From NCBI GenBank assembly GCA_947475095.1, contig CANJLG010000015.1, positions 1-51,585 on the forward strand: a stretch of DNA of 51,585 bases, written 5' to 3'. The position numbers and the translations under genes are program-made. Numbering within the stretch: position 1 is the stretch's first letter; the number at the start of each line of letters is the position of its first letter. The notes beneath the pieces are model-generated. The model made no database searches. It was not told where the DNA came from and saw nothing but the letters and a program-made list of their open reading frames with translations. This stretch comes from Flavobacteriales bacterium (lineage in GTDB: Bacteria > Bacteroidota > Bacteroidia > Flavobacteriales_D > Crocinitomicaceae). This document shows, one piece after another, positions 32,931 to 46,168 of the stretch.

Positions 32931-33019
32931 AGAAACAATTTACGCAAAGTTAAGAAGATATTGTCTTAATGGCGGAATAAATTATACCCCAACACTTATG
33001 GAGAGGGACGGTGGTATTT

Positions 33020-33464
33020 CTAATTGATAAAGACAGCCGCGTAGGTCTTTTTATCTTCTTTAAAAACAACAACCAAATCTACATCGGTTTGGATGTTTTT
33101 ATTGATTACCAAAGACATCTTGCCAAAATCCTCAGTACTAACATCGAATTTGATGAAATTATTTGTTTCAACTAAGTTCGTGATTTTACTAATAACCTCT
33201 TTACCATCTGCTACCCCACTCTCTAAAGAAATGTAGTTGTGTGTGAAAGTTTTAGCGTTTAAATCAATGGTGTAGTGATTAAATCCATCTGAAAAAAGGC
33301 CATCACCCAAATTTTCACCTTTTAATACGTCCTCGTATTTCATATTTTTACCCGTAAGGTCGTAAGTATTTAAAGCCGAACATACTATAAAAATTGTATT
33401 GTTTTTGAGCGTATAATGAAGACGACAACAAAAAAACAAATGCAGCAAAGATTAAATTTTTCAT
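33020..33464 (-). pseudogene. Small secreted protein gene broken by a single-base frameshift
   Basis: The ATG at 33464 begins a perfect signal peptide (MKNLIFAAFVFLLSSSLYAQ), but this frame stops soon after (near 33356). The rest, about 125 residues ending VVVFKEDKKTYAAVFIN, continues in the next frame. Removing one base from the run of five A (minus strand; plus-strand T5 at 33402-33406) joins the two into one 147-residue ORF reading AQNNTIFIVCSALN after the signal. The cause may be a real mutation, phase variation, or a sequencing error. The mature part is not recognised. It sits 29 bp downstream of another small secreted protein gene. Confidence 0.75.
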
Positions 33465-33493
33465 ATGGTTTATATTTTTTGTTAGGATAGGTG

Positions 33494-33925
33494 TTAATTT
33501 AAAGCCACTACCAAGTAGTATTTTTCTTCCTTTTGAATTACCTCAATCCAGTAAGATTCGCCTTCCATTCTAGAAAAATAATTCTTGTAGATGTCTTGAT
33601 GAATCATTTTATCCAAGCTATTTGTAAGATCCTCAGATTTGTAGGATCCTAATGAATCTGTTAAAGTCCACATCATATGAAAATAAGCATAGTCTTTACC
33701 TTTAGTTAGTTGTTTGCCGCCTACCTCCGCTTCTATAAATTGAAGACAACTTTCTCTAAGAGTAGAGTCTAGTTTTAATTCGTGATCGAAGAATAATGAA
33801 AGTACATTACTGAATTCTTTTATTATTTTAGTAGGTATTGGCTCTTTATTTACTCCCATACTAAAAGAATTAGAAGTGCAAAGAAGAAAAGTTCCTAAAG
33901 CAATTGTTAAAAATAACTTTTTCAT
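33494..33925 (-). CDS. Small secreted protein of unknown function
   Basis: A 143-residue protein with a signal peptide (MKKLFLTIALGTFLLCTSNSFS). The mature chain is helical at first (KIIKEFSNVLSLFFDHELKLDSTLRE) and ends in beta-like KEEKYYLVVALN, echoing the end of the frameshifted neighbour (KEDKKTYAAVFIN). The two may be distant paralogues in one operon; similarity elsewhere is not obvious. No family recognised. Confidence 0.72.
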   Translation of the reverse strand: MKKLFLTIALGTFLLCTSNSFSMGVNKEPIPTKIIKEFSNVLSLFFDHELKLDSTLRESCLQFIEAEVGGKQLTKGKDYAYFHMMWTLTDSLGSYKSEDLTNSLDKMIHQDIYKNYFSRMEGESYWIEVIQKEEKYYLVVALN

Positions 33926-34005
33926 AATTTTTAAATTTCAGGTTATACACCGATTTAAAGTAGATAATTAAAAAATAAAAATCGGTAACAAAAAAAAACT
34001 ATTCT

Positions 34006-34022
34006 AAGGATTTGGAGGGGGT
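34006..34022 (+). repeat. 17-bp direct repeat, left flank of lipid cluster
   Basis: AAGGATTTGGAGGGGGT is identical to 43719-43735. The pair brackets the seven-gene cluster 34140-43592. Could be an insertion scar or copies of a dispersed intergenic motif. Confidence 0.6.
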
Positions 34023-34139
34023 TTTATATTGTAGAAGAACAGATAAAATAAAGCAAGAATCAGACCCGATTTATCGAAGGGTACTACTTCACTCTCACTC
34101 TGCAATAGTAATCTGTTTATTCAAAAGGCACAAAACATT

Positions 34140-35210
34140 TCATTTACCTAACTCTTTAAGCAGACTGTAATGTTTTCTTATGGCAACTAAAAAAGTACTG
34201 TTCGAATGATACGGATAATCGAATTCCCTTGCTGTATTCTGAACGATCTTAGAAAGAGATTGATAATGAACATGGCATACATCAGGGAACAAATGATGTT
34301 CGATCTGAAAGTTCAATCCCCCCAGAAAGAAAGTGAGCACCTTATTATTCATGGCAAAATTTGAAGTAGTTCGCATTTGATGTAAATGCCAGTTGACCTG
34401 TTCATCTCGATCAACATCTGCAAATTCGACATTCGGAACAACATGAGCCAATTGAAAAATGATCGTCATGACAATACCCGAAACAACGACCATTGTGAGG
34501 AACATCAAAAGGATCAGATAATTTGGAAAAGGCAGAACCAACAACGGTATTATGAGAAAAACAGCAAAAAAAACAAGTTTCTTTATCAGGATCTGCAAAG
34601 TGAGGAATGCTGCTTCCCAACCAGTCTTTAAAAATCCGAGGCTATAGAATTTCCTTACTTTATTGAAATCCTTCAATGTTATCCATTCAATGGTCAACAA
34701 GCCATATAAAAACGTCGCATACACATGTTGAAAGCGATGAAACCACCGTATCGGCTGATCTTTTGAAAAACGAAAAAAGAAGCGCGGATTGATATCCTGA
34801 TCGATCCCATTAACATTCGTATAATTATGATGAATGATGTTGTGCTCGATCGACCAGATCTTAGATTCAACACCGATTAAAAGGATCGGAATTTCAAGTA
34901 AAAAAGAAACGAATTTATTGTTTGTATATGCCCCGTGTACTTTATCGTGCATCACGCAAATACCAATAAAGGTATGCCCTAGACCGAGTAAAACCCACAA
35001 AAAGAAATGAACTCCCAGATTTGAAATCGAACCGAAAAGAATCACAACATAAACCAAGGCATAGAAGCAAAAAGCAAAAAAAGTCTTCCAGAACATCGAT
35101 TTATCTGCTTTTCTGACAATTTCGTTCCTCGCGAAATAATCATTCACCCTTTCCTGCAGCTTCCGCTGAAAATCATTGTCAGAAGTCTGTATGAATTTGT
35201 AATCGATCAT
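34140..35210 (-). CDS. Fatty acid desaturase (QIEHH front-end-like type)
   Basis: A 356-residue membrane di-iron desaturase with three His boxes: HDKVH (88-92), HNIIHH (123-128) and QIEHH (302-306). A Gln in place of the first His of box three is typical of front-end (delta-5/6) and related acyl-CoA/acyl-lipid desaturases. It has four or more membrane helices and no fused cytochrome b5. The ATG at 35210 is preferred over an in-frame TTG at 35231. It is divergent from the sulfotransferase gene and the leftmost gene of the cluster. It probably inserts a double bond into the acyl chain of the cluster product, but a separate role in membrane lipids is possible. Confidence 0.9.
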   Translation of the reverse strand: MIDYKFIQTSDNDFQRKLQERVNDYFARNEIVRKADKSMFWKTFFAFCFYALVYVVILFGSISNLGVHFFLWVLLGLGHTFIGICVMHDKVHGAYTNNKFVSFLLEIPILLIGVESKIWSIEHNIIHHNYTNVNGIDQDINPRFFFRFSKDQPIRWFHRFQHVYATFLYGLLTIEWITLKDFNKVRKFYSLGFLKTGWEAAFLTLQILIKKLVFFAVFLIIPLLVLPFPNYLILLMFLTMVVVSGIVMTIIFQLAHVVPNVEFADVDRDEQVNWHLHQMRTTSNFAMNNKVLTFFLGGLNFQIEHHLFPDVCHVHYQSLSKIVQNTAREFDYPYHSNSTFLVAIRKHYSLLKELGK

Positions 35211-35304
35211 TGTATAAATCCTAGCTATCAATTTTCAATAAGCTGTATAAAATTAAGTAAATATCTTGAAAGAATCCCTACTTTTAAATCGAGCTTACAC
35301 GATC

Positions 35305-36447
35305 ATGTGGCAAGAAAAATTTGTTATTTGTTTGAATAAAATGCATTCAAAACTTAGAAAACTTCCCTTTTACCCCTTAGGGAAATTACTATTGATCACT
35401 TTTCAGAACGGTGGTGTAAGCTTTCGGAGAATACCGGTATTTATCCTGTTCTTGCTTCGCTACATTTTATTCGAACCATTTCGTTTAACAGAAATACTGC
35501 TCTTTGAAAGGAAGATCCGAAAACATGAACTACAAGAGGATCCGATTTTTATTCTTGGTCATTGGCGCAGCGGAACAACTCATTTACAGGAGCTTTTAGA
35601 AGCCGATTCAAACCACACAACTATTTCCGTGTATCAATTCTTGTTCATTGATCATTTCATCTTGACTGAACGATGGCTGAAGCCTCCCATGAATGCTTTC
35701 TGCAGGATTTTTAAGATTCCCTATTCCTTTCAACGGGTTACCATGAACCTGAATATGCCCGGAGAGCTAGAATCGGCTATGTGTGCAGGTTTAAGTGATC
35801 ACAGTTATACATGGGGCCACATTTTTCCAAAGCGTTATGAATACTGGTTCGGTCGCATGATTGGGTTAAAACGACCAAAGGATCAGGAAGGCTGGCTGGA
35901 TGACTACGATTTTCTTATCAAGAAAATATCATTTGCTTCAGGTGGTAAAAGGGTGATCGTCAAATCTCCGGGTGATACCGGTCGAGCAAATCACCTTTTG
36001 AAAAGGTACCCTAAGGCTAAGTTTGTTTTCATTGAGCGCGACCCAATTTCTGTGTACCATTCCACGATGTACTTCTGGAGAGTTATTCAGAAAGAGGTAA
36101 GTTTTCAAAAGGTGAACGACGAGCAACTTCAAGGTTATTGCATCAATTCCTATATCAAACTGAAAGAAGCTTATCACTACTTCAGAAAACAAATTCCTTC
36201 GGAACAGCTCTATGAACTTACTTTCAAGGAACTTATAAGCGAACCAATGGAAACTTTAAATCGGTTATATGACGAATTGGAGTTAGGGGTATTACCGATA
36301 AAACAAGTCGAGCAGAAACTAATCTTGAAGCGGGATCATCAGAAGGTTAACTACACAACCTCACCTGAACTTGCCCGTGATATCGAGGAAAAATGGGAAA
36401 GCATCCAACCGGACCCTAATTTCGGATCCGATGAAACTTCATATTGA
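35305..36447 (+). CDS. PAPS-dependent sulfotransferase family protein
   Basis: A protein of about 380 residues. The 5'-phosphosulfate loop is FILGHWRSGTTHLQELL (near residues 82-98), and the 3'-phosphate block is VIVKSPGDTGRANHLLKRYP followed by KFVFIERDPISVYHSTMYFWR, the Arg/Ser pair that holds PAP. This resembles the bacterial Stf3-like sulfotransferase group. It would move sulfate from PAPS to a hydroxyl on a lipid or small molecule. The ATG at 35305 is chosen; a TTG at 35266 would add 13 residues. The 3' end overlaps the convergent P450 gene by 32 bp. A hydrophobic stretch near residues 45-70 (IPVFILFLLRYILF) suggests membrane association. Confidence 0.92.
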   Translation: MWQEKFVICLNKMHSKLRKLPFYPLGKLLLITFQNGGVSFRRIPVFILFLLRYILFEPFRLTEILLFERKIRKHELQEDPIFILGHWRSGTTHLQELLEADSNHTTISVYQFLFIDHFILTERWLKPPMNAFCRIFKIPYSFQRVTMNLNMPGELESAMCAGLSDHSYTWGHIFPKRYEYWFGRMIGLKRPKDQEGWLDDYDFLIKKISFASGGKRVIVKSPGDTGRANHLLKRYPKAKFVFIERDPISVYHSTMYFWRVIQKEVSFQKVNDEQLQGYCINSYIKLKEAYHYFRKQIPSEQLYELTFKELISEPMETLNRLYDELELGVLPIKQVEQKLILKRDHQKVNYTTSPELARDIEEKWESIQPDPNFGSDETSY

Positions 36448-37774
36448 CCGGTCCATCTGGTTTAAGCAACATCATGGCATGTAAGCCAAGTTCCTTTTTA
36501 TCAGTTAGTTCAAAATCGTAAGCTCTGACGATTGCACTCATCACCAACAACACCTGCATTTTGGCCATGTTCTGACCAATACAGACCCTTGGTCCACCTC
36601 CAAAAGGAATATGTGCAAACGGATGGATCTTATCACCACTTTCTCCTAAAAAACGGAAAGGATCGAATTTCTCCGGGTCTTTCCAGTATTCAGCATTGTG
36701 ATGAACCCCATAAATATATGGGATTACTGTTGTCCCTTTTGGAATTTTCATCCCATTAAACTCATCGTCAACCTGCGCTTCACGATCGATCATCCAGAAA
36801 GGAGGATACATGCGCATTGCTTCATCTAGAACCGCAATAGTATATTTTAAACTATGTAATCTGCTGTAGTTGACTTCTTCCTCACCAAAAGTCTCCTCTA
36901 TTTCTTGACGAATCGTCTGTAAACACTCCGGATGTTTTGCAATAATGTAGAAAGTCCAAGTGGCCGCTGTGGTGGATGTTTCATTTCCGGCTACGAGCAA
37001 CTGCAAGATCTCGACCTTTACCTTCTCATCACTCATGAATTCATTTGTTCCCTTGAATGGTGTCGAGAGGATCAATTCAAGAATATCACTGCCTTCTCCC
37101 GGTTTTTTCCTTCGTTCCTCGATGTAATCAATAATAATCTGGTCCCCTTCTTCTCTGACCTTATGGTATTTCTTGTCTTGGCCGGTGAGGTAAAACCAAG
37201 GCATGAGATATGGTTGGACAACTTTTTTTACAATGTATCGCTGGATATCCGCAATGGCCGCTGCAAATTTTTCCAGTTCTTCTTCCTTCATCTGCTTCCC
37301 AAAAAGTGACTTCCCGACCGTAAGAAGTGTGAACTTTACCATTTGCTCATGAATATCAACAATTCCCTTCTCTGTTGCTTGATCAAAGGTTTTCAGGAAA
37401 TCATGAAGCACTTCCAACTGGATAGGTAGGATCTCCGCCAAACGTCCACGCGTAAAGCCCATACTTAGTAATTTTCGCTGACGTAGCCAGTAATCACCAT
37501 GACTGTTTGTCAACCCGACCCCCTGAAATTCAACGAATCGTTCTGTCTGGATATGTGACTTGTGATAATTGTCGTTATTGTCTTTCAGGACATGCTTCAG
37601 TAATTCAGGATCAGCAGTAACGATCGTATCTCTGATTCCGAATCTAAAACGGAAGGTCGGGCCAAGTTTTTTTCTATATTTCTCAAATACTACAACGGGA
37701 CTCTTCAGCATTTCAGGTGTGTCGAGCAGGGTTTCCACGACCGAGATCTTCGGAATGATATTTTTATTTTTCAT
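36416..37774 (-). CDS. Cytochrome P450
   Basis: A 452-residue P450. Heme-binding loop PFGGGPRVCIGQ with the Cys at about 398; I-helix oxygen-binding block AGNETSTT (about 262-269, with Asn-Glu-Thr in place of the common Gly-x-Asp/Glu-Thr spacing); E-x-x-R in DEAMRMYPP (Glu318, Arg321); PERF-like block DPFRFLGE. The overall pattern is closest to CYP102/CYP4-like fatty acid hydroxylases. ATG at 37774 is chosen; a GTG two codons earlier is possible. It overlaps the ligase-reductase gene by 11 bp and is co-transcribed with it. It would oxidise the acyl chain; the position is unknown. No redox partner gene is in the cluster. Confidence 0.94.
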   Translation of the reverse strand: MKNKNIIPKISVVETLLDTPEMLKSPVVVFEKYRKKLGPTFRFRFGIRDTIVTADPELLKHVLKDNNDNYHKSHIQTERFVEFQGVGLTNSHGDYWLRQRKLLSMGFTRGRLAEILPIQLEVLHDFLKTFDQATEKGIVDIHEQMVKFTLLTVGKSLFGKQMKEEELEKFAAAIADIQRYIVKKVVQPYLMPWFYLTGQDKKYHKVREEGDQIIIDYIEERRKKPGEGSDILELILSTPFKGTNEFMSDEKVKVEILQLLVAGNETSTTAATWTFYIIAKHPECLQTIRQEIEETFGEEEVNYSRLHSLKYTIAVLDEAMRMYPPFWMIDREAQVDDEFNGMKIPKGTTVIPYIYGVHHNAEYWKDPEKFDPFRFLGESGDKIHPFAHIPFGGGPRVCIGQNMAKMQVLLVMSAIVRAYDFELTDKKELGLHAMMLLKPDGPVNMKFHRIRN

Positions 37775-40700
37775 TTTCACTTTTTTCTGATTCTATAATA
37801 TGATTATTGGTCATGAACTGATAGATCCCATTCACAACTGCCTCCAGAGTATCATCTTCTTTGCCGAATGGGGAAAGTTTCCTGAATTTCTGGTAATTAC
37901 TGTTGTCATAACGTTTAAACTCCATTGAACTGATATTATCTACCGAACGAACCAGGAAGTTAAGCAAGGGAAACAAGAGATCATCCTTCTTGCAAAGACT
38001 GATAACCTCCGGAACGAACTCCTTCAATGGATAATTCCTGAATTCCCTCTCTGCTAATTGACTAAGTATGGCCGTTACATCCTGCATACTTGAAAATACA
38101 TCTCTAGTCACATGAAATGTATGATTGACGCTTTCAGGGACCAACGAAATAGCAACAATATTGTTCGCTCCAATATCAGCAGGCGTAAAACTTACCTGGT
38201 TCTTTGCAGAGGTTCCGATTCCGTATTTGAGCATAAAGGATAATAATCGAATGGAAATATCAAAGTTGTACCCTTTCCCGTCGATCGAAGGTGAGATCAG
38301 GGCAGGTCTGAAGATTCTTACGGGCAAACCTTTCTTTCGGGCATTTTCAACAAGTCTTTCGGATACCCACTTGCTCTGACTATATCCAAAATCTAGCAAA
38401 GCCATTTCTTCATTGCAGTCCGTCTCATAGAGCACATCCTTGGTTGACCATCCAAAAATAAAAGTGGTCGAAATGTAGTTCAGGACCTTTACTCGTTGAT
38501 TGTTTGCTAGACGTATTACCTCATTAGTACCTTCCACATTACTTCCGCGCATGGCCTCGTAATCCAGTAGGTAATTCACCAATGCTCCGTTGTGGTAGAT
38601 CGCATGAATATTCTTCGACAGAAAATCCCAGTCTTGTTCATTCAAACCCAAATGACGGCGATCCAAACTACCACATACCACAGAGACTCTGGTCATAAAT
38701 TCATTCAACAAAATCTCGCTACACCCGATGGTTAAAAAAGCTTCTTTTAGGCGCTGAAATCCCGCGTGTGAGTCATTCGCACGGACAAGAACCACGATAT
38801 TATCATGCTGCTGTTCGAGCAGACTTTTAATCAAGAAAGGACCGAAAAATCCTGTGCCGCCTGTAAGTAAGATCTTTCCTTCATTAGCTCTACTTAAAAA
38901 GTGTTCAGGTTTATCTGCGATTTGATCCATCAACGAATCCCGAATCATTAATTTCCGTTCGATCTCACCATATTCTGCATTGATCCTTGCCAGTGAACGT
39001 TTGAACCTGAATCGGGCCATGCGACTGGTGATACTGAGATCATAAAGAATATCATACAATTCAGCAACGGCTATTTTTTGAAGGATTCTCAGATCGACTT
39101 CTTCAGCCAGATCTTCAAACCGGAAACGTACAATAAGTTCCTTCAGATCATGTGCAAATTCAGCCAGTTTCAAGGAATCCAATCCTGAATCGCCCAAAGT
39201 GGACGTTTCACTCCCTGTCAAACCATAAAGGGAAAACAAGGTATCTATTTCAGCATTCGAGTTCAGTCTTTGATAAGAATCGTCTTTGGTTTGATGTGTT
39301 GATTTGCATTCGTATAGCACCTCAAATTCACCGGCTTCGAGCATGCGTTTATTTTCCAGTCTTCGGATCTTTCCGGAACTAGTTTTCGCGACATCTCTTG
39401 CCAAGACTGCGATCGCTCGTTCGACCGGAATCCCCAGCAAACTAACAGCTCGGTTATTTATATGCTCAAAATCAGGTAGATTACGCTTATTCTTTATGCC
39501 CATAACAACCGTAAGACCGGTCCCGTCTTTCGATCCAACTGAAAAAGCCGAAACACAGCCTTTACGAACATGTGGATCTTCTTCAAAAAGGGACTCAACA
39601 TCCTGAGGGTAATAATTCTGACCACGAATGATTATCATGTCCTTAATTCTTCCGCAAACGTATAGTTCATCATCTAGAACAAACCCCAGATCACCGGTGC
39701 GTAGCCACTGCCCGTCATCCCCTGCCATTGTTGCGTGAAATATCTCTTTCGTTTTTTCCGGATTGTTCCAATAACCTTTTCCTTTACTGGAACCCTTGAC
39801 CCAAATCTCTCCCACTTTGCCGTTATCCAGCTCATAGGGTTGATTATCTGCATTAACGATCTTTACAACTGTATCTCCAAGCGTCTTTCCACAACTCATT
39901 AAAGCAATTCCTTCTTGAGAGCCGGAAGATCCAATGAGCTTTAATGCATTTCCTTCCTTTAAGGATCCGGGATCAAAATAGTGGATTGCTCTACCATAAT
40001 TGCTTACTGCAAGCGTATTCTCGGCCAAACCATATGCAGTAAATGAAGCTTCAGGATGAAGACCATAGGCCTTGAATTTTTGAATGAATGATAAATAAAC
40101 AGTAGGTTTTACGGGTTCAGCTGCATTCATTACGAAGCGAAGAGAACTAAGATCCAATGTTTCGAGTACCTCATCACTAATTTTTCCCTCCTGAAGGCAG
40201 TAATCAAATGCAAAATTAGGAGCAGATGTAGCTGTTCCTTTATACTTAGTAATGGTTTCTAGCCAAAGAGCAGGTTTCAAAATAAAATCTGTAGGCGAAA
40301 AACCATAAGTGGTTCCCCCTTTTAATGCAAAGAACAAGTAGTAACCGATCAAACCCATGTCATGGTATTGTGGCAACCATGACACGCCGATTGGTGTGTG
40401 ATCAACGACGTTATTGCAATTATCCAGCAGGTTATCGTGTGTAATGATCACACCTTTTGGCTCACTGGTTGATCCAGATGTATATTGTAAAAAAAGTATT
40501 TCCGAAAATGCTTCTTCGAAGGATTGCGGATCCTCATTTCCGATTTCATCCGTTGCAATCCATTTAACCTTATCGAAAAGCCCTATATCACTCTTCCCAT
40601 CTGCTTTGATACGTTCTAGGTTTATCTGTGCCGATAATTGATACGTTCGAGTCGTAAAGATCGCACATGCCCCACAATCATCACCGATCAATTTCATTTT

Positions 40701-41009
40701 TCGGATGGCCGCTTCAAATCCATTCGCTGAAGGCGGATAAACAGGGACCGGAATTAGCCCCAAACGCACACATGCAAAAAATGAACAGATCATTTCCAAT
40801 CCGGGAGGATACACCAGTAAAACTCTGTCACCCTCTTTTAGATCATAGTTATTATAAATATGTGCAGCAATATTTTTTGAACGAAGATCAAACTCACGGT
40901 AGGTATACGATTCTTTTATATCACCTCTGATATCCAGAAACACATACAGGAGTTTATCCGGATGTATTGAGATTTTTTGATCTAATTCAGAGAGGATAGA
41001 TTTCATCAT
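37764..41009 (-). CDS. Fatty-acyl-AMP ligase / acyl carrier / thioester reductase fusion
   Basis: A 1081-residue three-part enzyme. Residues 1-565 form a fatty-acyl-AMP ligase: P-loop YTSGSTSEPKG (176-186), WLPQYHDMGLIG (211-222), YGLAENTLA (326-334), TGDLG (438-442), the FAAL mark IIIRGQNYYPQDVE (459-472) and the Lys547 region. About 585-690 is an acyl carrier domain with GDSGLDSLKL; Ser612 would carry the phosphopantetheine arm. From about 712 there is an SDR-type thioester reductase: TGGTGFFG (716-723), ISTTF, and Tyr876-x3-Lys880 in GYSQSKW. It would activate a fatty acid, load it in cis, and release it reductively as aldehyde or alcohol. It overlaps the phosphopantetheinyl transferase gene by 4 bp. 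Confidence 0.94.
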   Translation of the reverse strand: MMKSILSELDQKISIHPDKLLYVFLDIRGDIKESYTYREFDLRSKNIAAHIYNNYDLKEGDRVLLVYPPGLEMICSFFACVRLGLIPVPVYPPSANGFEAAIRKMKLIGDDCGACAIFTTRTYQLSAQINLERIKADGKSDIGLFDKVKWIATDEIGNEDPQSFEEAFSEILFLQYTSGSTSEPKGVIITHDNLLDNCNNVVDHTPIGVSWLPQYHDMGLIGYYLFFALKGGTTYGFSPTDFILKPALWLETITKYKGTATSAPNFAFDYCLQEGKISDEVLETLDLSSLRFVMNAAEPVKPTVYLSFIQKFKAYGLHPEASFTAYGLAENTLAVSNYGRAIHYFDPGSLKEGNALKLIGSSGSQEGIALMSCGKTLGDTVVKIVNADNQPYELDNGKVGEIWVKGSSKGKGYWNNPEKTKEIFHATMAGDDGQWLRTGDLGFVLDDELYVCGRIKDMIIIRGQNYYPQDVESLFEEDPHVRKGCVSAFSVGSKDGTGLTVVMGIKNKRNLPDFEHINNRAVSLLGIPVERAIAVLARDVAKTSSGKIRRLENKRMLEAGEFEVLYECKSTHQTKDDSYQRLNSNAEIDTLFSLYGLTGSETSTLGDSGLDSLKLAEFAHDLKELIVRFRFEDLAEEVDLRILQKIAVAELYDILYDLSITSRMARFRFKRSLARINAEYGEIERKLMIRDSLMDQIADKPEHFLSRANEGKILLTGGTGFFGPFLIKSLLEQQHDNIVVLVRANDSHAGFQRLKEAFLTIGCSEILLNEFMTRVSVVCGSLDRRHLGLNEQDWDFLSKNIHAIYHNGALVNYLLDYEAMRGSNVEGTNEVIRLANNQRVKVLNYISTTFIFGWSTKDVLYETDCNEEMALLDFGYSQSKWVSERLVENARKKGLPVRIFRPALISPSIDGKGYNFDISIRLLSFMLKYGIGTSAKNQVSFTPADIGANNIVAISLVPESVNHTFHVTRDVFSSMQDVTAILSQLAEREFRNYPLKEFVPEVISLCKKDDLLFPLLNFLVRSVDNISSMEFKRYDNSNYQKFRKLSPFGKEDDTLEAVVNGIYQFMTNNHIIESEKSENEK

Positions 41010-41731
41010 ATCAGTAAGTCAAGTTCAGAAGATATTATTTCAGACAGACATTGTTGATCCAATTCTATGTTAAACGAACGACAATTAATAGCAATTGCTC
41101 CAATTAGATCACTTTTCAGTTCAGGTATTAAAATTTGCCAGTTTTCTAGATCAATTTCACCTGCAAATGTATTCAAAATTGCAGCCACTGAATCATTTTT
41201 AAATTTCACTTCAATATGTTTCAATGGTGATGACAATCCACTTCCAAGTCCTTTAAAAAAGGATTCCTTAACTGTCCATATTTTCAAAAAAAATTCTCTT
41301 CGTTTGTCTTCACGACACTGCGATAAACTAATTTGTTCACTATCAGAAAGAATCAAATTAAAGAGTTTGGAAATTACAACGGGACGATGTAACCATTCGA
41401 TATCAATTCCTATTTCCCCGAGTGTTGTGATCGCTATTACGAAAATATCTTCTGTATGAGAACAGTTGAAATAGAGTTTCTCATTTTCAATGAAGGGTTT
41501 TCCATTAGTTCCGTACCCTATTTTAAGATTGTCGATAGGCAGATCCAGAAATTCTGACGCTAACTTTTTAAGGTAAAAGCGGCAGACAGCAAAAGTATTC
41601 CGGTCATGAACATTATAGAAAGATGACAATCTGTTAAGTTCATGTTCATCAAGTTTAAGGTCCATCCAATTCTTGTATAGAATTTGAACGGAACCTGTAA
41701 AAAGATAAATTTTATTTTGACTTTTATTCAA
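41006..41731 (-). CDS. 4'-phosphopantetheinyl transferase, Sfp type
   Basis: A protein of about 241 residues. Family marks are GTNGKPFIENEKLYFNCSHTED (72-94), GIDIEW (108-113, Mg-binding Asp/Glu) and WTVKESFFKGLGSGL (152-166, catalytic Glu156 and Lys160). It moves the phosphopantetheine arm of CoA to an acyl carrier serine. The only start that keeps the first beta strand (KIYLFTGSVQIL) is a TTG at 41731; the next ATG is 22 codons later. The stop overlaps the start of the ligase-carrier-reductase gene (ATGA), so this enzyme almost certainly activates that protein. Confidence 0.93.
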   Translation of the reverse strand: MNKSQNKIYLFTGSVQILYKNWMDLKLDEHELNRLSSFYNVHDRNTFAVCRFYLKKLASEFLDLPIDNLKIGYGTNGKPFIENEKLYFNCSHTEDIFVIAITTLGEIGIDIEWLHRPVVISKLFNLILSDSEQISLSQCREDKRREFFLKIWTVKESFFKGLGSGLSSPLKHIEVKFKNDSVAAILNTFAGEIDLENWQILIPELKSDLIGAIAINCRSFNIELDQQCLSEIISSELDLLI

Positions 41732-41826
41732 CTGTATTGTGGATTGTACTACTAATTTAAAAATCTATCTGTAATATAGCATTAATTATTACTTTTATTC
41801 CTCTTCGATTTTAACTTTACCTAACT

Positions 41827-42822
41827 ATGAACTCAGAAGAATTCGATAAAGCTATAAAGATCCTTCAACCATACGCAATACGGAATCAATATTACGCCAT
41901 AAGCCAATTGATCTTGACCATTCTTATGTTATATTTTGGAATTTTACTAAGTTATTATTCCATTCTCAATTCAACTTTCTGGATATTAGTTGTTTCAATC
42001 CCAATTACCGTAGCCTTCATGTGCAGAAGCTACGTCATAGAACATGATTGCGGACACCAAAGTTATTTTAGATCGGCTAATTTGAACGATCTTACAGGCA
42101 ACATTATTGGGTTTGGGATAATGATACCTTATTCCATGTGGAAATTTATTCACAATAGCCATCATATGCATGTAGGAAATCTTGACAAACGCAACTTTAA
42201 TCCCGAGGTTTGGACAATGACAATCACTGAATTTCGAAATGCTACCAAGATAAAACGAACTTTGTATAGAATCATGCGATCACGATTTGCAAGATTGATC
42301 ATAGTACCAACGATCAATTACGGCTTGGTATTCCGATTGATCCATCCCAATTTCAATAAAAAAGCCATTTTTTCGGTTTTAATACACAATATTTTATACC
42401 TTTTATTATTCTGGCTCATAATCTCGAAGATTGGCTTTTTATCCGTCTTTATTATTTATTTCCTTCCTTTAATATTGTTCTTTGCGATTGCAGCATTTAC
42501 TTTTTATGGGCAACATCAATTCGAAGATACCTACTGGAGAGCTGACGCCGAATGGAATTGGAAAGAAGCAACAATGTATGGCGCTTCTGATCTTCAATCG
42601 CCTGTTTGGTTCAGGTGGCTAATTGGAAATGTGGTTTGCCACACCGCACATCACATCCATTTCCAAGTCCCTTTTTATCGCCTTCATGAGGCACAAAAAG
42701 CTCTCAATAACGAATTTCATTTTAAAAGAATCTCGATAACTGAAGTTTGGCATTTACTCGGATTAGGCCTCTGGGATGAAGAAAAACAAAAGTTGGTTCC
42801 AATTAAAAATGCTAGCAAATAG
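41827..42822 (+). CDS. Fatty acid desaturase (delta-12-like, three His boxes)
   Basis: A 331-residue membrane di-iron enzyme with HDCGH (73-77), HNSHH (109-113) and HTAHH (272-276), the H-x3-H, H-x2-HH, H-x2-HH pattern of DesA-like acyl-lipid desaturases and of related acetylenases. It differs clearly from the QIEHH enzyme at 34140, so the cluster has two unlike desaturases. It is divergent from the phosphopantetheinyl transferase operon and starts a two-gene run with the membrane protein 11 bp downstream. It would act on an acyl lipid or on the carrier-bound chain; whether it forms double or triple bonds is not readable. Confidence 0.92.
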   Translation: MNSEEFDKAIKILQPYAIRNQYYAISQLILTILMLYFGILLSYYSILNSTFWILVVSIPITVAFMCRSYVIEHDCGHQSYFRSANLNDLTGNIIGFGIMIPYSMWKFIHNSHHMHVGNLDKRNFNPEVWTMTITEFRNATKIKRTLYRIMRSRFARLIIVPTINYGLVFRLIHPNFNKKAIFSVLIHNILYLLLFWLIISKIGFLSVFIIYFLPLILFFAIAAFTFYGQHQFEDTYWRADAEWNWKEATMYGASDLQSPVWFRWLIGNVVCHTAHHIHFQVPFYRLHEAQKALNNEFHFKRISITEVWHLLGLGLWDEEKQKLVPIKNASK

Positions 42823-42833
42823 TTTAAAAAAAT

Positions 42834-43592
42834 ATGTTTTCAGTCAGAAAATCAACCAAATTTCATGGCAATGCCAATTTTAATGTATTAATATACATCC
42901 TGCTGATCACGTCAATTTTGATCACTTTTTACGGAATAAATTACCTTGTCATTTTTCTAAGCAGCAGTTTACTTCATCTTCTTATCGAAACAGGTTTAAC
43001 CATAAGTAATATCCGAAAAGGAAGCACTTATTTGTTTGGCCGTAAACTTTCCAAGCCCGGTGAGATAATCCTTCGCTCTTTTGTTGAAGGCCCGGCTTTC
43101 TGTGTCCCTGCTTTTTTCATTGCTGATCAGTTCATTGCCGGCAATGTGTTACTCGCTTTGATAAGCGCAACATTTATTGTTGGCATTGCTGCATTCTATT
43201 TGGCTTATTCAGATAATTTTCAACTTAGAAAAGTAAAAACGGACGATGATGTAATCATCATTAGAAGAGCCATGACAAAACCCAAGTCTGTCATGTTACT
43301 CGCATTGATCAATACGATCTGTATTTCAATGATGTTCTTAATTCCTATAGATTCCCGTTCTCACGCATTCGCATACCTACTCTCTTATTCACTCTTCGTG
43401 GTTTTATTCTATTTCATCAATTACAATATGAGGGTTCGGTACATAGAACTTTATGATCCGGAGACAATGGAATATAAAAAGCCTGGTGTTTTGATGCAAG
43501 TTGGGGGACTACTATATGACAGTGCTTATGAAATGGCTTTGCTTATTTCTCCGGCTTATTGGATCCCATATTACATGGGGATTTTTTCTTAG
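42834..43592 (+). CDS. Unrecognised multi-pass membrane protein in the lipid cluster
   Basis: A 252-residue protein with about seven hydrophobic helices (NVLIYILLITSILITFYGI, VLLALISATFIVGIAAFYLA, SVMLLALINTICISMMFLI, FAYLLSYSLFVVLFYFI and others). Polar or charged residues inside or between helices include HLLIETGLT, RSFVEGPAF and LYDSAYEMALLISPAYWIPYY. It has no His boxes and I recognise no family. It follows the second desaturase gene by 11 bp and is probably co-expressed with it. It could be a transporter, an acyl-transferring enzyme or a desaturase partner; none of these is supported by a motif. Confidence 0.78.
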   Translation: MFSVRKSTKFHGNANFNVLIYILLITSILITFYGINYLVIFLSSSLLHLLIETGLTISNIRKGSTYLFGRKLSKPGEIILRSFVEGPAFCVPAFFIADQFIAGNVLLALISATFIVGIAAFYLAYSDNFQLRKVKTDDDVIIIRRAMTKPKSVMLLALINTICISMMFLIPIDSRSHAFAYLLSYSLFVVLFYFINYNMRVRYIELYDPETMEYKKPGVLMQVGGLLYDSAYEMALLISPAYWIPYYMGIFS

Positions 43593-43638
43593 AATTAACT
43601 GTTTTTTTTGAATGAAAAAATCGGACTTTCATTTTAAG

Positions 43639-43694
43639 GGATTATGCTGCGCATGATCCGTTGCGTTTTGGGCTTACCCAAGCATAGAACCCCA
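43639..43694 (+). repeat. Palindromic repeat family, copy 1
   Basis: Begins GGATTATGCTGCGCATGATC (hairpin, loop TGC), then the TTGGG-CTTA-CCCAA hairpin and ends near ACCCCA. Shared with copies 2-4 at 45613, 45733 and 45821. Confidence 0.7.
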
Positions 43695-43718
43695 AGGGTC
43701 GAAAAATCTAACTTTTAC

Positions 43719-43735
43719 AAGGATTTGGAGGGGGT
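43719..43735 (+). repeat. 17-bp direct repeat, right flank of lipid cluster
   Basis: AAGGATTTGGAGGGGGT, identical to 34006-34022. The preceding bases also resemble each other (AACTATTCT on the left, AACTTTTAC on the right). Confidence 0.6.
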
Positions 43736-43819
43736 GTTGGAATGGGAAGATACCGTCGAAAATACTGTAAACGGTAAAAAAAGATAAAACTACCTTTTGT
43801 AAGAGTTTGCTTCCTTAGC

Positions 43820-45352
43820 TTAAGAAAATATCGATTTATATTTCTCTTCAATTATACCAATTTCATCCTCAGTCAATTCTTTAAATTCATTGCTTCGTGC
43901 ACGCTTAGAAAGTTGTCCATTTCCTTGTTCCAAAAATCCAACCAAAAGGGAGACCATATTGTCTGGCATTTCATATTTATGATCTAAGTATCTTTTGAAT
44001 TCGTCAAACTTCATTAAATATTCGACTTCTTTAGGGATAACATTAACCAAAGTGTCATTAACACAATAAAAGAGAAATTCAGCCTGTGCTGTTGCATCAA
44101 AATAGCGGTAATAGTCTATGGTATCATTTAAAATTTCGACATTATTATTCTCTGATGGTTTCCAATCAATAAAATTCAAAATTGGATGTGAATAGGATTC
44201 TAATGTTTTTGCATAGTCCTTAATATGTTTTAGGATAGAAGCTGAAACTGGAAAAATGATTCCTTGTTCGGTATAACCTGTTTGCGATAAAATATGGTGA
44301 ATGATATAGCGATGTAAACGTCCGTTTCCATCTACAAAAGGGTGAATAAAAACAAATCCAAATGCAATTTTAGCGGCCACTAATAAGGGGTCCATTCTCG
44401 ATTGCGTGAGCACTTTTTGTGTTTGAATCCATCCTGCCATTAATGTGTCAAGATCTTCAAATTTTGCAGAAATGTGATCTGGAATTGGTTCTTGTGATGC
44501 ACGATCCCTATCACCAATAAATCCTTGCTGCTGCCTTATTCCCATTTTGATAAATCGGTCATTTTCTATTACCAATTGTTGCAAGCGATTCAACTCAGCA
44601 ATTGTCAGTTCATTTTTACCCGCCTGACCAATTGCTTTCCCCCAGCGGGCCGCACGATTATTTCTTGGATTTTCTCCCTCAATTGAAAATGATGCTTTTG
44701 AATCTTTTAAAAGAAGAAATGATGAAGCACGCTGTAGTACATCCTTATGAACTCTATTTAAGTAGTTATTTTTTTCCTGACGGATATTTGATTCAATATA
44801 TTTCTCAAGCTTTTCAGTTTTGCGAATAAGAGGGCAAAAATCTTGATTTCCGGGAAGATTATTAATTACTTTATGTCGAGGTGAACTTACGCCATCAATT
44901 CCATATTGTAATTTTTCATCAACAACAGGGACGAGATTCCCAGTTCTTAGATCTGGCAAGTTCAATTTAGTTTCCATTAACCACTCATACAAGAACCAAA
45001 TTCTGCGACTAAACTGTCCTTGTATTTCCTGTTGAATCATTTCTTCTAGCTCTGTTTTTTTGAGCAACTCAAATAATTTTTTAAATATGAGTAGATCAAC
45101 TCCTTCATACTTTAGAGCGAAAGTGATTTGTTTGTAGAGGTTTTCCTCCGGAAGGTATCTTGAAGGGAATACTTTCCATTCTTTATTCTTAAATTGTCTT
45201 TTCTTTGTGCTTATAAAAGTTAAATTCACAGGTATGGGAACAGCTAATTTATATGCTTCTATAATTGCACCATATCCGACAATAACACCATCTTCTGGAA
45301 CAGTTCTGCCGTGAAAAACACTTAATTGCAAGGAAAAACGCTTAATATTCAT
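43820..45352 (-). CDS. Fic family protein with N-terminal inhibitory helix
   Basis: A 510-residue protein. The Fic core carries the complete active loop HPFVDGNGR (337-345). The inhibitory motif S-x3-E-G is present as SFSIEG (221-226), upstream of the core, which makes it a class II, self-inhibited Fic protein; the Glu would block ATP gamma-phosphate binding. The first about 200 residues are helical and unrecognised; the C-terminal about 120 look like a winged-helix-type segment (LVGFLEQGNGQLSKRARSNEF). Fic enzymes transfer AMP to a target hydroxyl. The upstream region and first codons carry repeated GTGAAA/CACTTAA motifs that may mediate self-regulation. No antitoxin gene is adjacent. Confidence 0.9.
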   Translation of the reverse strand: MNIKRFSLQLSVFHGRTVPEDGVIVGYGAIIEAYKLAVPIPVNLTFISTKKRQFKNKEWKVFPSRYLPEENLYKQITFALKYEGVDLLIFKKLFELLKKTELEEMIQQEIQGQFSRRIWFLYEWLMETKLNLPDLRTGNLVPVVDEKLQYGIDGVSSPRHKVINNLPGNQDFCPLIRKTEKLEKYIESNIRQEKNNYLNRVHKDVLQRASSFLLLKDSKASFSIEGENPRNNRAARWGKAIGQAGKNELTIAELNRLQQLVIENDRFIKMGIRQQQGFIGDRDRASQEPIPDHISAKFEDLDTLMAGWIQTQKVLTQSRMDPLLVAAKIAFGFVFIHPFVDGNGRLHRYIIHHILSQTGYTEQGIIFPVSASILKHIKDYAKTLESYSHPILNFIDWKPSENNNVEILNDTIDYYRYFDATAQAEFLFYCVNDTLVNVIPKEVEYLMKFDEFKRYLDHKYEMPDNMVSLLVGFLEQGNGQLSKRARSNEFKELTEDEIGIIEEKYKSIFS

Positions 45353-45453
45353 ACTAATTGGTGAAATTTAATTAAGTGCAAGATAGGTGAAATTTATGTA
45401 ATCAGGGTGAAATCCACTTAAAATAATATAATTTAAGTGAAAAACACTTAATT
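45311..45453. promoter_or_regulatory. Repeated GTGAAA / TTAAGTG motif cluster at the fic promoter
   Basis: An identical 17-bp sequence, GTGAAAAACACTTAATT, occurs at 45311-45327 (inside the fic 5' coding end) and 45437-45453. Between them GTGAAAT starts at 45361, 45388 and 45408, and TTAAGTG or CACTTA occurs near 45373, 45414 and 45433. TTAAGTG-AAAAA-CACTTAA at about 45433-45451 is an inverted repeat. This density at one promoter looks like an operator array for a DNA-binding protein, possibly the Fic protein's own C-terminal domain. Confidence 0.5.
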
Positions 45454-45558
45454 ACTGCGTTATAGTTCTAACTTTTCATTTTTTCTCTAAACTCAGTAAA
45501 ATAAAGGGGGAACGCCTAAAATTCCTTCATGTTCTCCGCTTGGGGTTCAACCATAAAA

Positions 45559-45589
45559 AAAGTCCCAAACCTATATGGAATGGGACTTT
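45559..45589 (-). terminator. Hairpin terminator on the minus strand beside the tRNA-end duplicate
   Basis: A 9-bp stem (45559-45567 with 45581-45589; arm AAAGTCCCA) is followed on the minus strand by T7. It lies just past the 20-bp tRNA 3'-end copy, as the real tRNA terminator lies past the real 3' end. Confidence 0.7.
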
Positions 45590-45597
45590 AAGATTAC

Positions 45598-45617
45598 TTT
45601 GTGACCTCGTAAGGATT
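45598..45617 (-). repeat. 20-bp duplicate of the tRNA-Arg 3' end (att-like)
   Basis: Identical to 45983-46002: on the minus strand AATCCTTACGAGGTCACAAA, covering the end of the T loop, the 3' T stem and the 3' acceptor strand plus trailer of the tRNA. The rest of the tRNA is not present here; sequence passes directly into palindromic repeat copy 2. Confidence 0.7.
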
Positions 45618-45688
45618 ATTCCATGATCCAAAGCGTTTTGGGCTTACCCAAGCATGGAACCCCAACTGCTTTGCAGTTGTAGGTTTTT
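45613..45688 (+). repeat. Palindromic repeat family, copy 2
   Basis: Begins GGATTATTCCATGATCC, a variant of the family start, then shares GCGTTTTGGGCTTACCCAAG with copy 1 and ends with the hairpin AACTGC-TTT-GCAGTT. Confidence 0.65.
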
Positions 45689-45732
45689 TCATTTTCCATC
45701 GCTTTTCAAAATACATTTTGAAAGGTTTTAAC

Positions 45733-45810
45733 GGATTATGCTGCGCATGATCCGTTTCGTTTTGGGCATTACAAGCATGGCGCCCGTTATTGCTATGCAG
45801 TTAGAGGTTT
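45733..45810 (+). repeat. Palindromic repeat family, copy 3
   Basis: Begins GGATTATGCTGCGCATGATC, then GTTTTGGGCATTACAAGCAT, GGCGCCCGT and an imperfect terminal hairpin. It is 88 bp before copy 4, nearly identical over its first 60 bp. Confidence 0.7.
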
Positions 45811-45820
45811 TTCTTTTAAC

Positions 45821-45893
45821 GGATTATGCTGCGCATGAACCGTTGCGTTTTGGGCATTACAAGCATGGCGCCCGTCAATGCTTCGCATTAACT
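45821..45893 (+). repeat. Palindromic repeat family, copy 4
   Basis: Begins GGATTATGCTGCGCATGAAC; shares the GTTTTGGGCATTACAAGCAT and GGCGCCCGT parts with copy 3; ends with AATGC-TTC-GCATT. Confidence 0.7.
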
Positions 45894-45953
45894 TATCTTT
45901 TTTATTTCTTCTAGCTTTCAGAAATGTATTCTGACGCTATTATAAATAAAAAA

Positions 45954-45978
45954 GCCCGCTTCATTTTATGAAGCGGGC
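45954..45978 (-). terminator. Terminator of the tRNA-Arg gene
   Basis: A perfect 11-bp stem (45954-45964 with 45968-45978; arm GCCCGCTTCAT) with a 3-nt loop, followed on the minus strand by a T-rich tail. It starts 8 bp past the tRNA 3' end. Confidence 0.85.
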
Positions 45979-45986
45979 GCCTTTTG

Positions 45987-46060
45987 TGACCTCGTAAGGA
46001 TTCTAACCTTAAACCTCCACAGCCGTAATGTGGTGCTCTATACAGTTGAGCTACGAAGCC
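45987..46060 (-). tRNA. tRNA-Arg (anticodon ACG)
   Basis: A 74-nt cloverleaf without an encoded CCA. Acceptor GGCTTCG/CGAGGTC (two wobbles), D stem GCTC/GAGC, anticodon stem CCACA/TGTGG with loop TTACGGC (anticodon ACG, read as ICG), T stem TAAGG/CCTTA, discriminator A. The D loop is AACTGTATA and the T loop TTAGAAT, so the normally invariant G19 and C56 are T and A. These could still pair as U19-A56; the Levitt pair is A15-U48. A terminator follows. The last part of the gene is duplicated at 45598. Confidence 0.88.
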
Positions 46061-46147
46061 GATTGTTTGATTATTCAGCCACAAAGATAAAGATAAAAAC
46101 AAATTAGGCAAAGTATAGTTGTAAGATTATTGCTCATAGATTAATAG

Positions 46148-46155
46148 TAAATTTG
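46148..46155 (+). promoter_or_regulatory. Candidate -7 promoter box for the 46169 nitroreductase gene
   Basis: TAAATTTG fits TAnnTTTG and lies 13 bp before the ATG. Confidence 0.35.
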
Positions 46156-46168
46156 TAAAAAACACCGA

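What the first reader, a model, noticed from the sequence alone, without database searches (positions are those of the whole stretch)
34140..43592. Candidate undescribed lipid biosynthetic cluster: FAAL-carrier-reductase, P450, two desaturases, sulfotransferase, own phosphopantetheinyl transferase
Seen: seven adjacent genes, three in an overlapping operon (41731 to 36416 on the minus strand) and two divergent pairs around it. Established: FAALs activate fatty acids for carrier proteins; SDR thioester reductases release aldehydes or alcohols; polyyne clusters such as caryoynencin combine a FAAL, a carrier, desaturases and a P450, and JamABC makes terminal alkynes with a FAAL, acetylenase and carrier. 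Inferred: a fatty acid is loaded in cis, desaturated (perhaps to an alkyne), hydroxylated, released reductively and sulfated, giving a sulfated unsaturated fatty alcohol or aldehyde. I know of no characterised cluster with this exact set, but could not search.
Basis: partly seen in the sequence, partly recalled or inferred. Interest (0 to 1): 0.85.

Follow-up and report, generated by a model that had tools for sequence, protein, structure and literature searches.

The report
Mobile seven-gene sulfated-lipid biosynthesis cluster
A freshwater flavobacterium and scattered relatives carry a conserved block of seven genes that probably makes an undescribed sulfated, unsaturated fatty alcohol, and one of the seven is a membrane protein of no known family.

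Summary
Seven adjacent genes (34140-43592) encode two unrelated desaturases, a PAPS sulfotransferase, a P450, a FAAL-carrier-thioester reductase, a phosphopantetheinyl transferase and mem7, a membrane protein without a Pfam family. Of 399 genomes of the order, 8 have mem7, all among the 10 with the full-type synthetase and within about 2 kb of it (nine of the ten are the same records as the loci). The block lies in a 13-kb stretch between a helicase gene and tRNA-Arg that is 0.4 kb in a relative. The synthetase with a P450 and/or desaturase recurs in several phyla. Best reading: a fatty acid is loaded, desaturated, hydroxylated, released reductively and sulfated. Product, order and mem7's role are unproven. 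Polyyne membership is not met (two desaturases; no thioesterase or rubredoxin gene), though a published polyyne subclade also replaces those two genes by a P450. New variant of a known kind.

The parts
34140..35231 (-). Desaturase 1 (des1), 363 aa, membrane di-iron type with boxes HDxxH, HxxxHH, QIEHH
   Evidence: PF00487 110.8 bits; His boxes; relatives (down to 29% identity) within 6 kb of the FAAL in 54 of 80 loci. The listed start is a TTG; the true start is uncertain.
35266..36447 (+). PAPS sulfotransferase (ST), 393 aa
   Evidence: PF13469 94.7 bits; GHWRSGTTHL and RDPxxxYxS motifs; model pLDDT 90, nearest solved folds Mtb STF1 and M. avium STF9.
36416..37780 (-). Cytochrome P450, 454 aa, the only PF00067 match in the genome assembly
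   Evidence: PF00067 323.8 bits; FGGGPRVCIG, AGNET, EAMR motifs; single match in the genome.
37764..41009 (-). FAAL - carrier domain - NAD(P)-dependent thioester reductase, 1081 aa
   Evidence: AMP-binding 206.5 bits, NAD_binding_4 181.9 bits; Thioester-redct over its cut-off; PDB matches include FadD32, FadD23, a fatty acyl-adenylate ligase and the MxaA reductase; carrier Ser612 and reductase Y876/K880 invariant in 20 sequences.
41006..41731 (-). 4'-phosphopantetheinyl transferase (Sfp/HetI-like), 241 aa, overlapping the synthetase gene by 4 bp
   Evidence: PF01648 61.3 bits; HetI model 86.9 bits, below its cut-off of 370; GIDIE, WTVKES. A second ACPS-family match lies elsewhere in the genome.
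41827..42822 (+). Desaturase 2 (des2), 331 aa, boxes HDxxH, HxxHH, HxxHH
   Evidence: PF00487 93.7 bits; NCBIfam DesA delta-5 model 191.1 bits, below its cut-off of 500; no meaningful BLASTP match to des1.
42834..43592 (+). mem7, 252-aa polytopic membrane protein of no described family; 20 invariant residues in a 49-sequence alignment
34006..34022 (+). 17-bp direct repeat, copy 1 (inside a 36-nt repeat at 33990-34025)
   Evidence: two exact copies in the 2.56-Mb assembly, this one and the next.
43719..43735 (+). 17-bp direct repeat, copy 2 (inside a 36-nt, 81% identical repeat at 43703-43738), just past mem7
45986..46060 (-). tRNA-Arg(acg); its 3' end faces the insertion
   Evidence: also present at the corresponding site in L140, L141 and L142; a 20-bp copy of its 3'-end region lies at 45598-45617.

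Best explanation
A dedicated, horizontally spread pathway for a sulfated, unsaturated, oxygenated fatty alcohol (or aldehyde). Steps: the PPTase arms the carrier domain; the FAAL domain adenylates a fatty acid and loads it on the carrier in cis; the two different membrane desaturases add double bonds (on the acyl-carrier or on a membrane lipid); the P450, whose gene overlaps that of the synthetase, hydroxylates the chain; the reductase domain releases aldehyde or, by four-electron reduction, alcohol; the sulfotransferase moves sulfate from PAPS to a hydroxyl, either the one the P450 made or the released alcohol; mem7 acts in the membrane as a late enzyme, docking subunit or exporter. Shown: gene identities, catalytic motifs, joint inheritance, insertion. 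Inferred from the families: each reaction. Unknown: order, chain length, positions, mem7's role.
For: Domains and motifs. All seven genes in the same order in 7 of 80 loci, with truncated or reduced versions besides. Pairwise identities across nine clusters follow those of the FAAL: des2 0.97, ST 0.94, des1 0.91, mem7 0.85, PPTase 0.82, P450 0.62 (pairs are not independent). mem7 in 8 of 399 genomes of the order, all among the 10 with the full-type FAAL and on the same contig. FAAL, mem7 and ST homologue lists share contig lengths of 5 kb or more 12, 10 and 8 times against jitter means of 0.19, 0.31 and 0.12. FAAL with an ST relative also in a Verrucomicrobiota, a Planctomycetota and a Rhodoblastus locus. 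APS kinase in the genome. A P450 followed by a sulfotransferase on a lipid is described for Mtb (PMC6469627, passages), and 3 of the 120 listed ST homologues carry a source's name for that sulfotransferase type.
Against: No product or enzyme assay. P450 identities follow the FAAL least (0.62), so it has a partly separate history. ST lies near the FAAL in only 13 of 80 loci and mem7 in 11 of 80; 13 of 80 have none of the window's neighbours within 6 kb, some because the contig ends. L032-L034 have only FAAL-P450-des1, so sulfation is an add-on to the core. In the tree the complete-set loci are not one clade: at least three gains or losses are needed. No transporter family and no acyl- or headgroup transferase among the seven proteins. 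Sequence does not tell whether the reductase gives aldehyde or alcohol.
Confidence: 0.5

Rival explanations
1. Same enzymes, but the sulfate is a leaving group: hydroxylation (perhaps allylic) and sulfation prime an elimination or rearrangement, as recalled for curacin, olefin synthase and retinol dehydratase, so the product carries extra unsaturation and no sulfate.
For: Foldseek lists the curacin and olefin-synthase sulfotransferase domains and retinol dehydratase among the solved folds similar to the ST model; two desaturases sit beside the P450.
Against: Closest folds are the mycobacterial STF1 and STF9; no thioesterase or ketosynthase domain in the seven proteins, unlike olefin synthases (PMC11837247, passages).
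Confidence: 0.15
2. The product is a structural envelope lipid (modified fatty alcohol for wax, ether lipid or outer-membrane lipid), sulfated or not, rather than a secreted metabolite. This overlaps with the best explanation in chemistry but not in role.
For: A gene clustering with an MMPL protein (one representative scanned) in 33 of the 39 Acidobacteriota loci; cyclopropane-synthase-like and FMO-like genes near the FAAL in some other loci (one representative of each scanned).
Against: No acyl- or headgroup transferase among the seven proteins; patchy, insertion-borne occurrence (10 of 399 genomes of the order) suits an accessory compound better.
Confidence: 0.25
3. An alkyne or polyyne pathway.
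For: FAAL, carrier and desaturase together are what PMC8406139 took as evidence of alkyne biosynthesis potential, and that paper reports 10 actinobacterial polyyne genomes with a P450 in place of thioesterase and rubredoxin (passages).
Against: Two desaturases rather than three; no thioesterase domain; no room for a rubredoxin gene between the seven genes. Similarity to JamA, JamB or JamC was not tested.
Confidence: 0.09
4. Neighbours without a joint function, brought together in an insertion hot spot.
For: Two relatives hold other genes around the same tRNA (L140, L141).
Against: Same set and order in several different chromosomal surroundings, overlapping genes, co-varying divergence.
Confidence: 0.03

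Closest known systems
Polyyne/alkyne clusters (caryoynencin, protegencin, jamABC)
   Same: FAAL, carrier and membrane desaturases; a P450 in some
   Different: Carrier fused between FAAL and a reductase; two desaturases; no thioesterase or rubredoxin gene in the block; sulfotransferase, PPTase and mem7 present
Mtb CYP128A1-Stf3 operon (sulfomenaquinone)
   Same: A P450 hydroxylation followed by a sulfotransferase on a lipid, as hypothesised there (PMC6469627, passages)
   Different: Three-gene operon acting on menaquinone; no FAAL-carrier-reductase or desaturase is mentioned in the passages seen
Carboxylic acid reductases (A-T-R)
   Same: Adenylation-carrier-reductase order in one protein (recalled)
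   Different: NCBIfam CAR model 140.5 bits against a cut-off of 1300, matching the reductase part only; adenylation domain closest to FAAL-type proteins
Acidobacteriota FAAL-reductase loci (P450, desaturase, MMPL)
   Same: Same synthetase architecture, mostly 48-50% identical, with a P450 and a des1 relative adjacent
   Different: P450 about 37-41% identical and on the other side; MMPL and a 266-aa protein of no Pfam family instead of ST, des2 and mem7; no product known to me

Membership tests
Fatty acyl-AMP ligase (FAAL) | Adenylation domain closer to FAALs than to acyl-CoA ligases | tested here: met
   PDB matches named FadD32, FadD23 and fatty acyl-adenylate ligase score 200-242 bits, FadD13 and 4-coumarate CoA ligases under 90; the very top rows are named polyketide synthase, saframycin synthetase and acyl-CoA synthase, which I recall as FAAL structures. 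NCBIfam fatty-acid-AMP ligase models score 214-319 bits, all below their own cut-offs; one model named CoA ligase reaches 263.8, the others listed 134 or less.
Fatty acyl-AMP ligase (FAAL) | FAAL-specific insertion that blocks CoA use | not tested
   Not aligned to a structure residue by residue
Thioester reductase domain | Score over the TIGR01746 cut-off; Tyr/Lys catalytic pair | tested here: met
   228.2 bits against 213.35; Y876 and K880 invariant in 20 sequences
Carboxylic acid reductase | NCBIfam carboxyl_red equivalog score | tested here: not met
   140.5 bits against a cut-off of 1300
Polyyne cluster | FAAL + carrier + desaturase (jamABC set) | tested here: met
   All present as domains, FAAL and carrier fused; similarity to JamA/B/C themselves not tested
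Polyyne cluster | Three desaturases | tested here: not met
   Two in the cluster; two more PF00487 matches elsewhere in the genome
Polyyne cluster | Thioesterase and rubredoxin genes | tested here: not met
   No such Pfam hit in the seven proteins; gaps between genes at most 95 bp. The rest of the genome was not searched for them, and PMC8406139 reports 10 genomes with a P450 in their place.
PAPS-dependent sulfotransferase | Family score, 5'- and 3'-phosphate motifs, fold | tested here: met
   PF13469 94.7 bits against 27; motifs with G98, R101, S102, T104, R258, S266 invariant in 46 sequences; STF1 E 2e-11, TM 0.64 to the query
CYP128-Stf3 sulfomenaquinone pathway | Menaquinone substrate | not testable with these tools
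   Only resemblance of gene pairing and of database names for 3 of 120 listed homologues
Olefin synthase / CurM | Ketosynthase module and separate ST and TE | tested here: not met
   No ketosynthase, acyltransferase or thioesterase Pfam hit in the seven proteins
Any solved fold for mem7 | Significant structural match | tested here: inconclusive

The most novel reading that the evidence does not exclude
A cross-phylum family of FAAL-carrier-reductase lipid pathways has gone undescribed; its flavobacterial branch makes a new class of bacterial alkyl-sulfate lipids (natural surfactants or signals), spreads as a compact insertion unit, and needs a membrane enzyme of a new family and possibly a new fold (mem7).
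Probability: 0.3. Interest if true: 0.78.

Novelty: new variant of a known kind. Interest (0 to 1): 0.58.

Why it matters
If right, it adds a compact, portable pathway for sulfated oxidised fatty alcohols to bacteria, a lipid class for which none of the ten library listings showed a bacterial gene cluster, and it ties an orphan membrane protein family to a pathway in which its function can be tested. The FAAL-carrier-reductase core beside a P450 and/or desaturase in loci of Bacteroidota, Acidobacteriota, Verrucomicrobiota, Planctomycetota, Gemmatimonadota and Pseudomonadota suggests a larger orphan lipid chemistry.
Full report
OBSERVATION. The window is contig C15 of a 2.56-Mb genome assembly of 67 contigs, 98.7% complete. 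Pfam names six: FA_desaturase (des1), Sulfotransfer_3, p450, AMP-binding plus NAD_binding_4, ACPS, and FA_desaturase (des2). The seventh, mem7, has no family. The gaps between neighbours are 34, -32, -17, -4, 95 and 11 bp, so PPTase, synthetase and P450 genes overlap and there is no room for a further gene of usual size.

ENZYMES. The 1081-aa protein is FAAL-like over residues 14-555: its solved relatives include entries named FadD32, FadD23 and fatty acyl-adenylate ligase, well above named CoA ligases, and its reductase matches MxaA. NCBIfam FAAL models score 214-319 bits but stay below their own cut-offs; the thioester reductase model is passed (228.2 against 213.35 bits). In 20 aligned homologues, carrier Ser612 and reductase Tyr876/Lys880 are invariant. 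The P450 has the heme-Cys, I-helix and ExxR motifs and is the only PF00067 match in the genome. Its best solved match is a 'putative cytochrome P450', followed by plant carotenoid and human P450s; the BM3 fatty-acid hydroxylase appears further down, so its substrate cannot be read off. The sulfotransferase has both PAPS motifs, a confident model (pLDDT 90) and nearest folds Mtb STF1 and M. avium STF9. The genome has APS kinase and one other ACPS-family match. The two desaturases show no meaningful similarity by BLASTP and have different third boxes, QIEHH and HTAHH.

CONSERVATION. A scan of named genomes gave 199 confirmed relatives of the synthetase, of which the best 80 were kept. By BLASTP to the window proteins, a P450 lies within 6 kb of the synthetase in 56 of 80, a des1 relative in 54, ST in 13, mem7 in 11, des2 in 10 and the PPTase in 10; 13 of 80 have none of these. 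Many contigs are short: with at least 4 kb on both sides (43 of the 80) the figures are P450 35, des1 36 and ST 8. The complete set stands in the same order in 7 of 80 (L026, L030, L031, L035, L036, L039, L040), which are five distinct lineages since L030/L031 and L039/L040 are near-duplicates. L042 lacks only a recognised PPTase, L027-L029 are on short contigs, L044 has no des1 or des2 relative, and L032-L034 keep only synthetase-P450-des1. Among the complete sets only mem7 changes orientation. L026 is a near-copy (97-100%); in the others identity to the window runs from 23% (PPTase) to 83% (P450), with the synthetase at 52-59%. Pairwise identities across nine clusters follow the synthetase: des2 0.97, ST 0.94, des1 0.91, mem7 0.85, PPTase 0.82, P450 0.62. 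In a quick tree of 75 synthetases the flavobacterial clusters, L028, L029, L044 and L032-L034 form one 15-row group (SH-aLRT 99) inside a 21-row group (100) that also holds Verrucomicrobiota, Planctomycetota, Gemmatimonadota, Acidobacteriota and Calditrichota rows. Within it the complete-set loci are not one clade (at least three changes), so parts were lost or exchanged; several long branches make finer order unsure.

GENOME-LEVEL LINKAGE. In the same sample of 399 genomes of the order, mem7 occurs in 8 and the full-type synthetase (over 1200 bits; the other hits are at most 339) in 10. All 8 lie among the 10, with both genes on one contig within about 2 kb. The two exceptions are a contig-end fragment (G392) and the reduced type (G346). 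Nine of the ten look like the same records as the loci above, so what this adds is that mem7 was found in none of the other 389. In protein lists drawn from about 5.8 billion sequences, contig lengths of 5 kb or more coincide 12 times between FAAL and mem7, 10 between FAAL and ST and 8 between mem7 and ST homologues, against jitter means of 0.19, 0.31 and 0.12. The lists are the best 120 of 7321 (FAAL), all 109 (mem7) and the best 120 of 454 (ST).

INSERTION. In relative G006 (L142) the helicase gene and tRNA-Arg are about 0.4 kb apart; in the window they are 13.06 kb apart, with the cluster, two small ORFs and a Fic gene between them. G111 (L140) has other genes at that place and G301 (L141) has other genes on the far side of the tRNA. 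Elsewhere the unit lies in other surroundings: L147 (as L030), L145 (as L042, six genes), and a set shared by L035, L036, L039 and L040, whose flanks have common families. In each the unit ends in des1 and mem7. A 17-bp repeat brackets the block at 34006-34022 and 43719-43735 and has no other exact copy in the assembly. It was found by looking for repeats, so it is suggestive only; the close relative L143 shows one copy of its core.

MEM7. 109 homologues, none with a functional name; 20 invariant positions in 49 members, among them E52, R61, D127, R144, R145, N160, R202, Q222 and E233; model pLDDT 92; no significant solved fold. Conserved charged residues in a membrane protein tied to one pathway suggest an enzyme or a substrate-binding subunit; this is inference.

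MECHANISM. Loading, desaturation, hydroxylation, reductive release and sulfation follow from the families. The P450-sulfotransferase pairing has a parallel in Mtb, where CYP128A1 was hypothesised to hydroxylate menaquinone for sulfation by Stf3 (PMC6469627, passages); 3 of the 120 listed ST homologues carry a source's name for that sulfotransferase type (P0262, P0299, P0349). No ST relative was found near the synthetase in the 39 Acidobacteriota loci or in L032-L034, so the core probably makes an oxidised fatty alcohol or aldehyde, and sulfation is a branch-specific addition. In 33 of 39 Acidobacteriota loci a gene clustering with an MMPL protein is present (one representative scanned), which suggests export there.

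KNOWN SYSTEMS. Characterised polyyne clusters have seven common genes: FAAL, carrier, three desaturases, thioesterase and rubredoxin (PMC8406139, passages). This block lacks three of them, although that paper also reports 10 actinobacterial genomes with a P450 in place of the last two. In the FAAL review PMC11837247 no word begins with 'reductase', and none of the ten library listings showed this set; the library covers open-licence papers only and several listings were capped. I therefore rate it a new variant of a known kind: FAAL-initiated lipid biosynthesis with new tailoring.

Noticed in passing
window 32931-46168: Variable site around tRNA-Arg beside a DEAD-box helicase gene: about 0.4 kb between helicase and tRNA in L142, other genes there in L140, other genes on the far side of the tRNA in L141.
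   Followed up: partly
window 43632-45887: A family of 44-74-nt direct repeats (four places) between mem7 and tRNA-Arg, also aligning to the relatives' versions of the site; nature unknown.
   Followed up: partly
window 43820-45352: A 510-aa Fic-family gene in the same stretch; no BLASTP relative reported in the 81 loci compared, whose flanks are limited.
   Followed up: no
window 36416-37780; L030, L031: The P450 is 83% identical to that of L030/L031 while the other six genes are 26-59%, hinting at separate exchange of the P450.
   Followed up: no
L066:13912-14709 and relatives: A 266-aa protein without a Pfam hit (one representative scanned), in 30 Acidobacteriota loci with the FAAL-reductase gene and usually the MMPL-type gene.
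   Followed up: no
L068, L101, L094: FMO-like and cyclopropane-synthase-like genes near FAAL-reductases (one representative of each scanned), suggesting further lipid tailoring variants.
   Followed up: no
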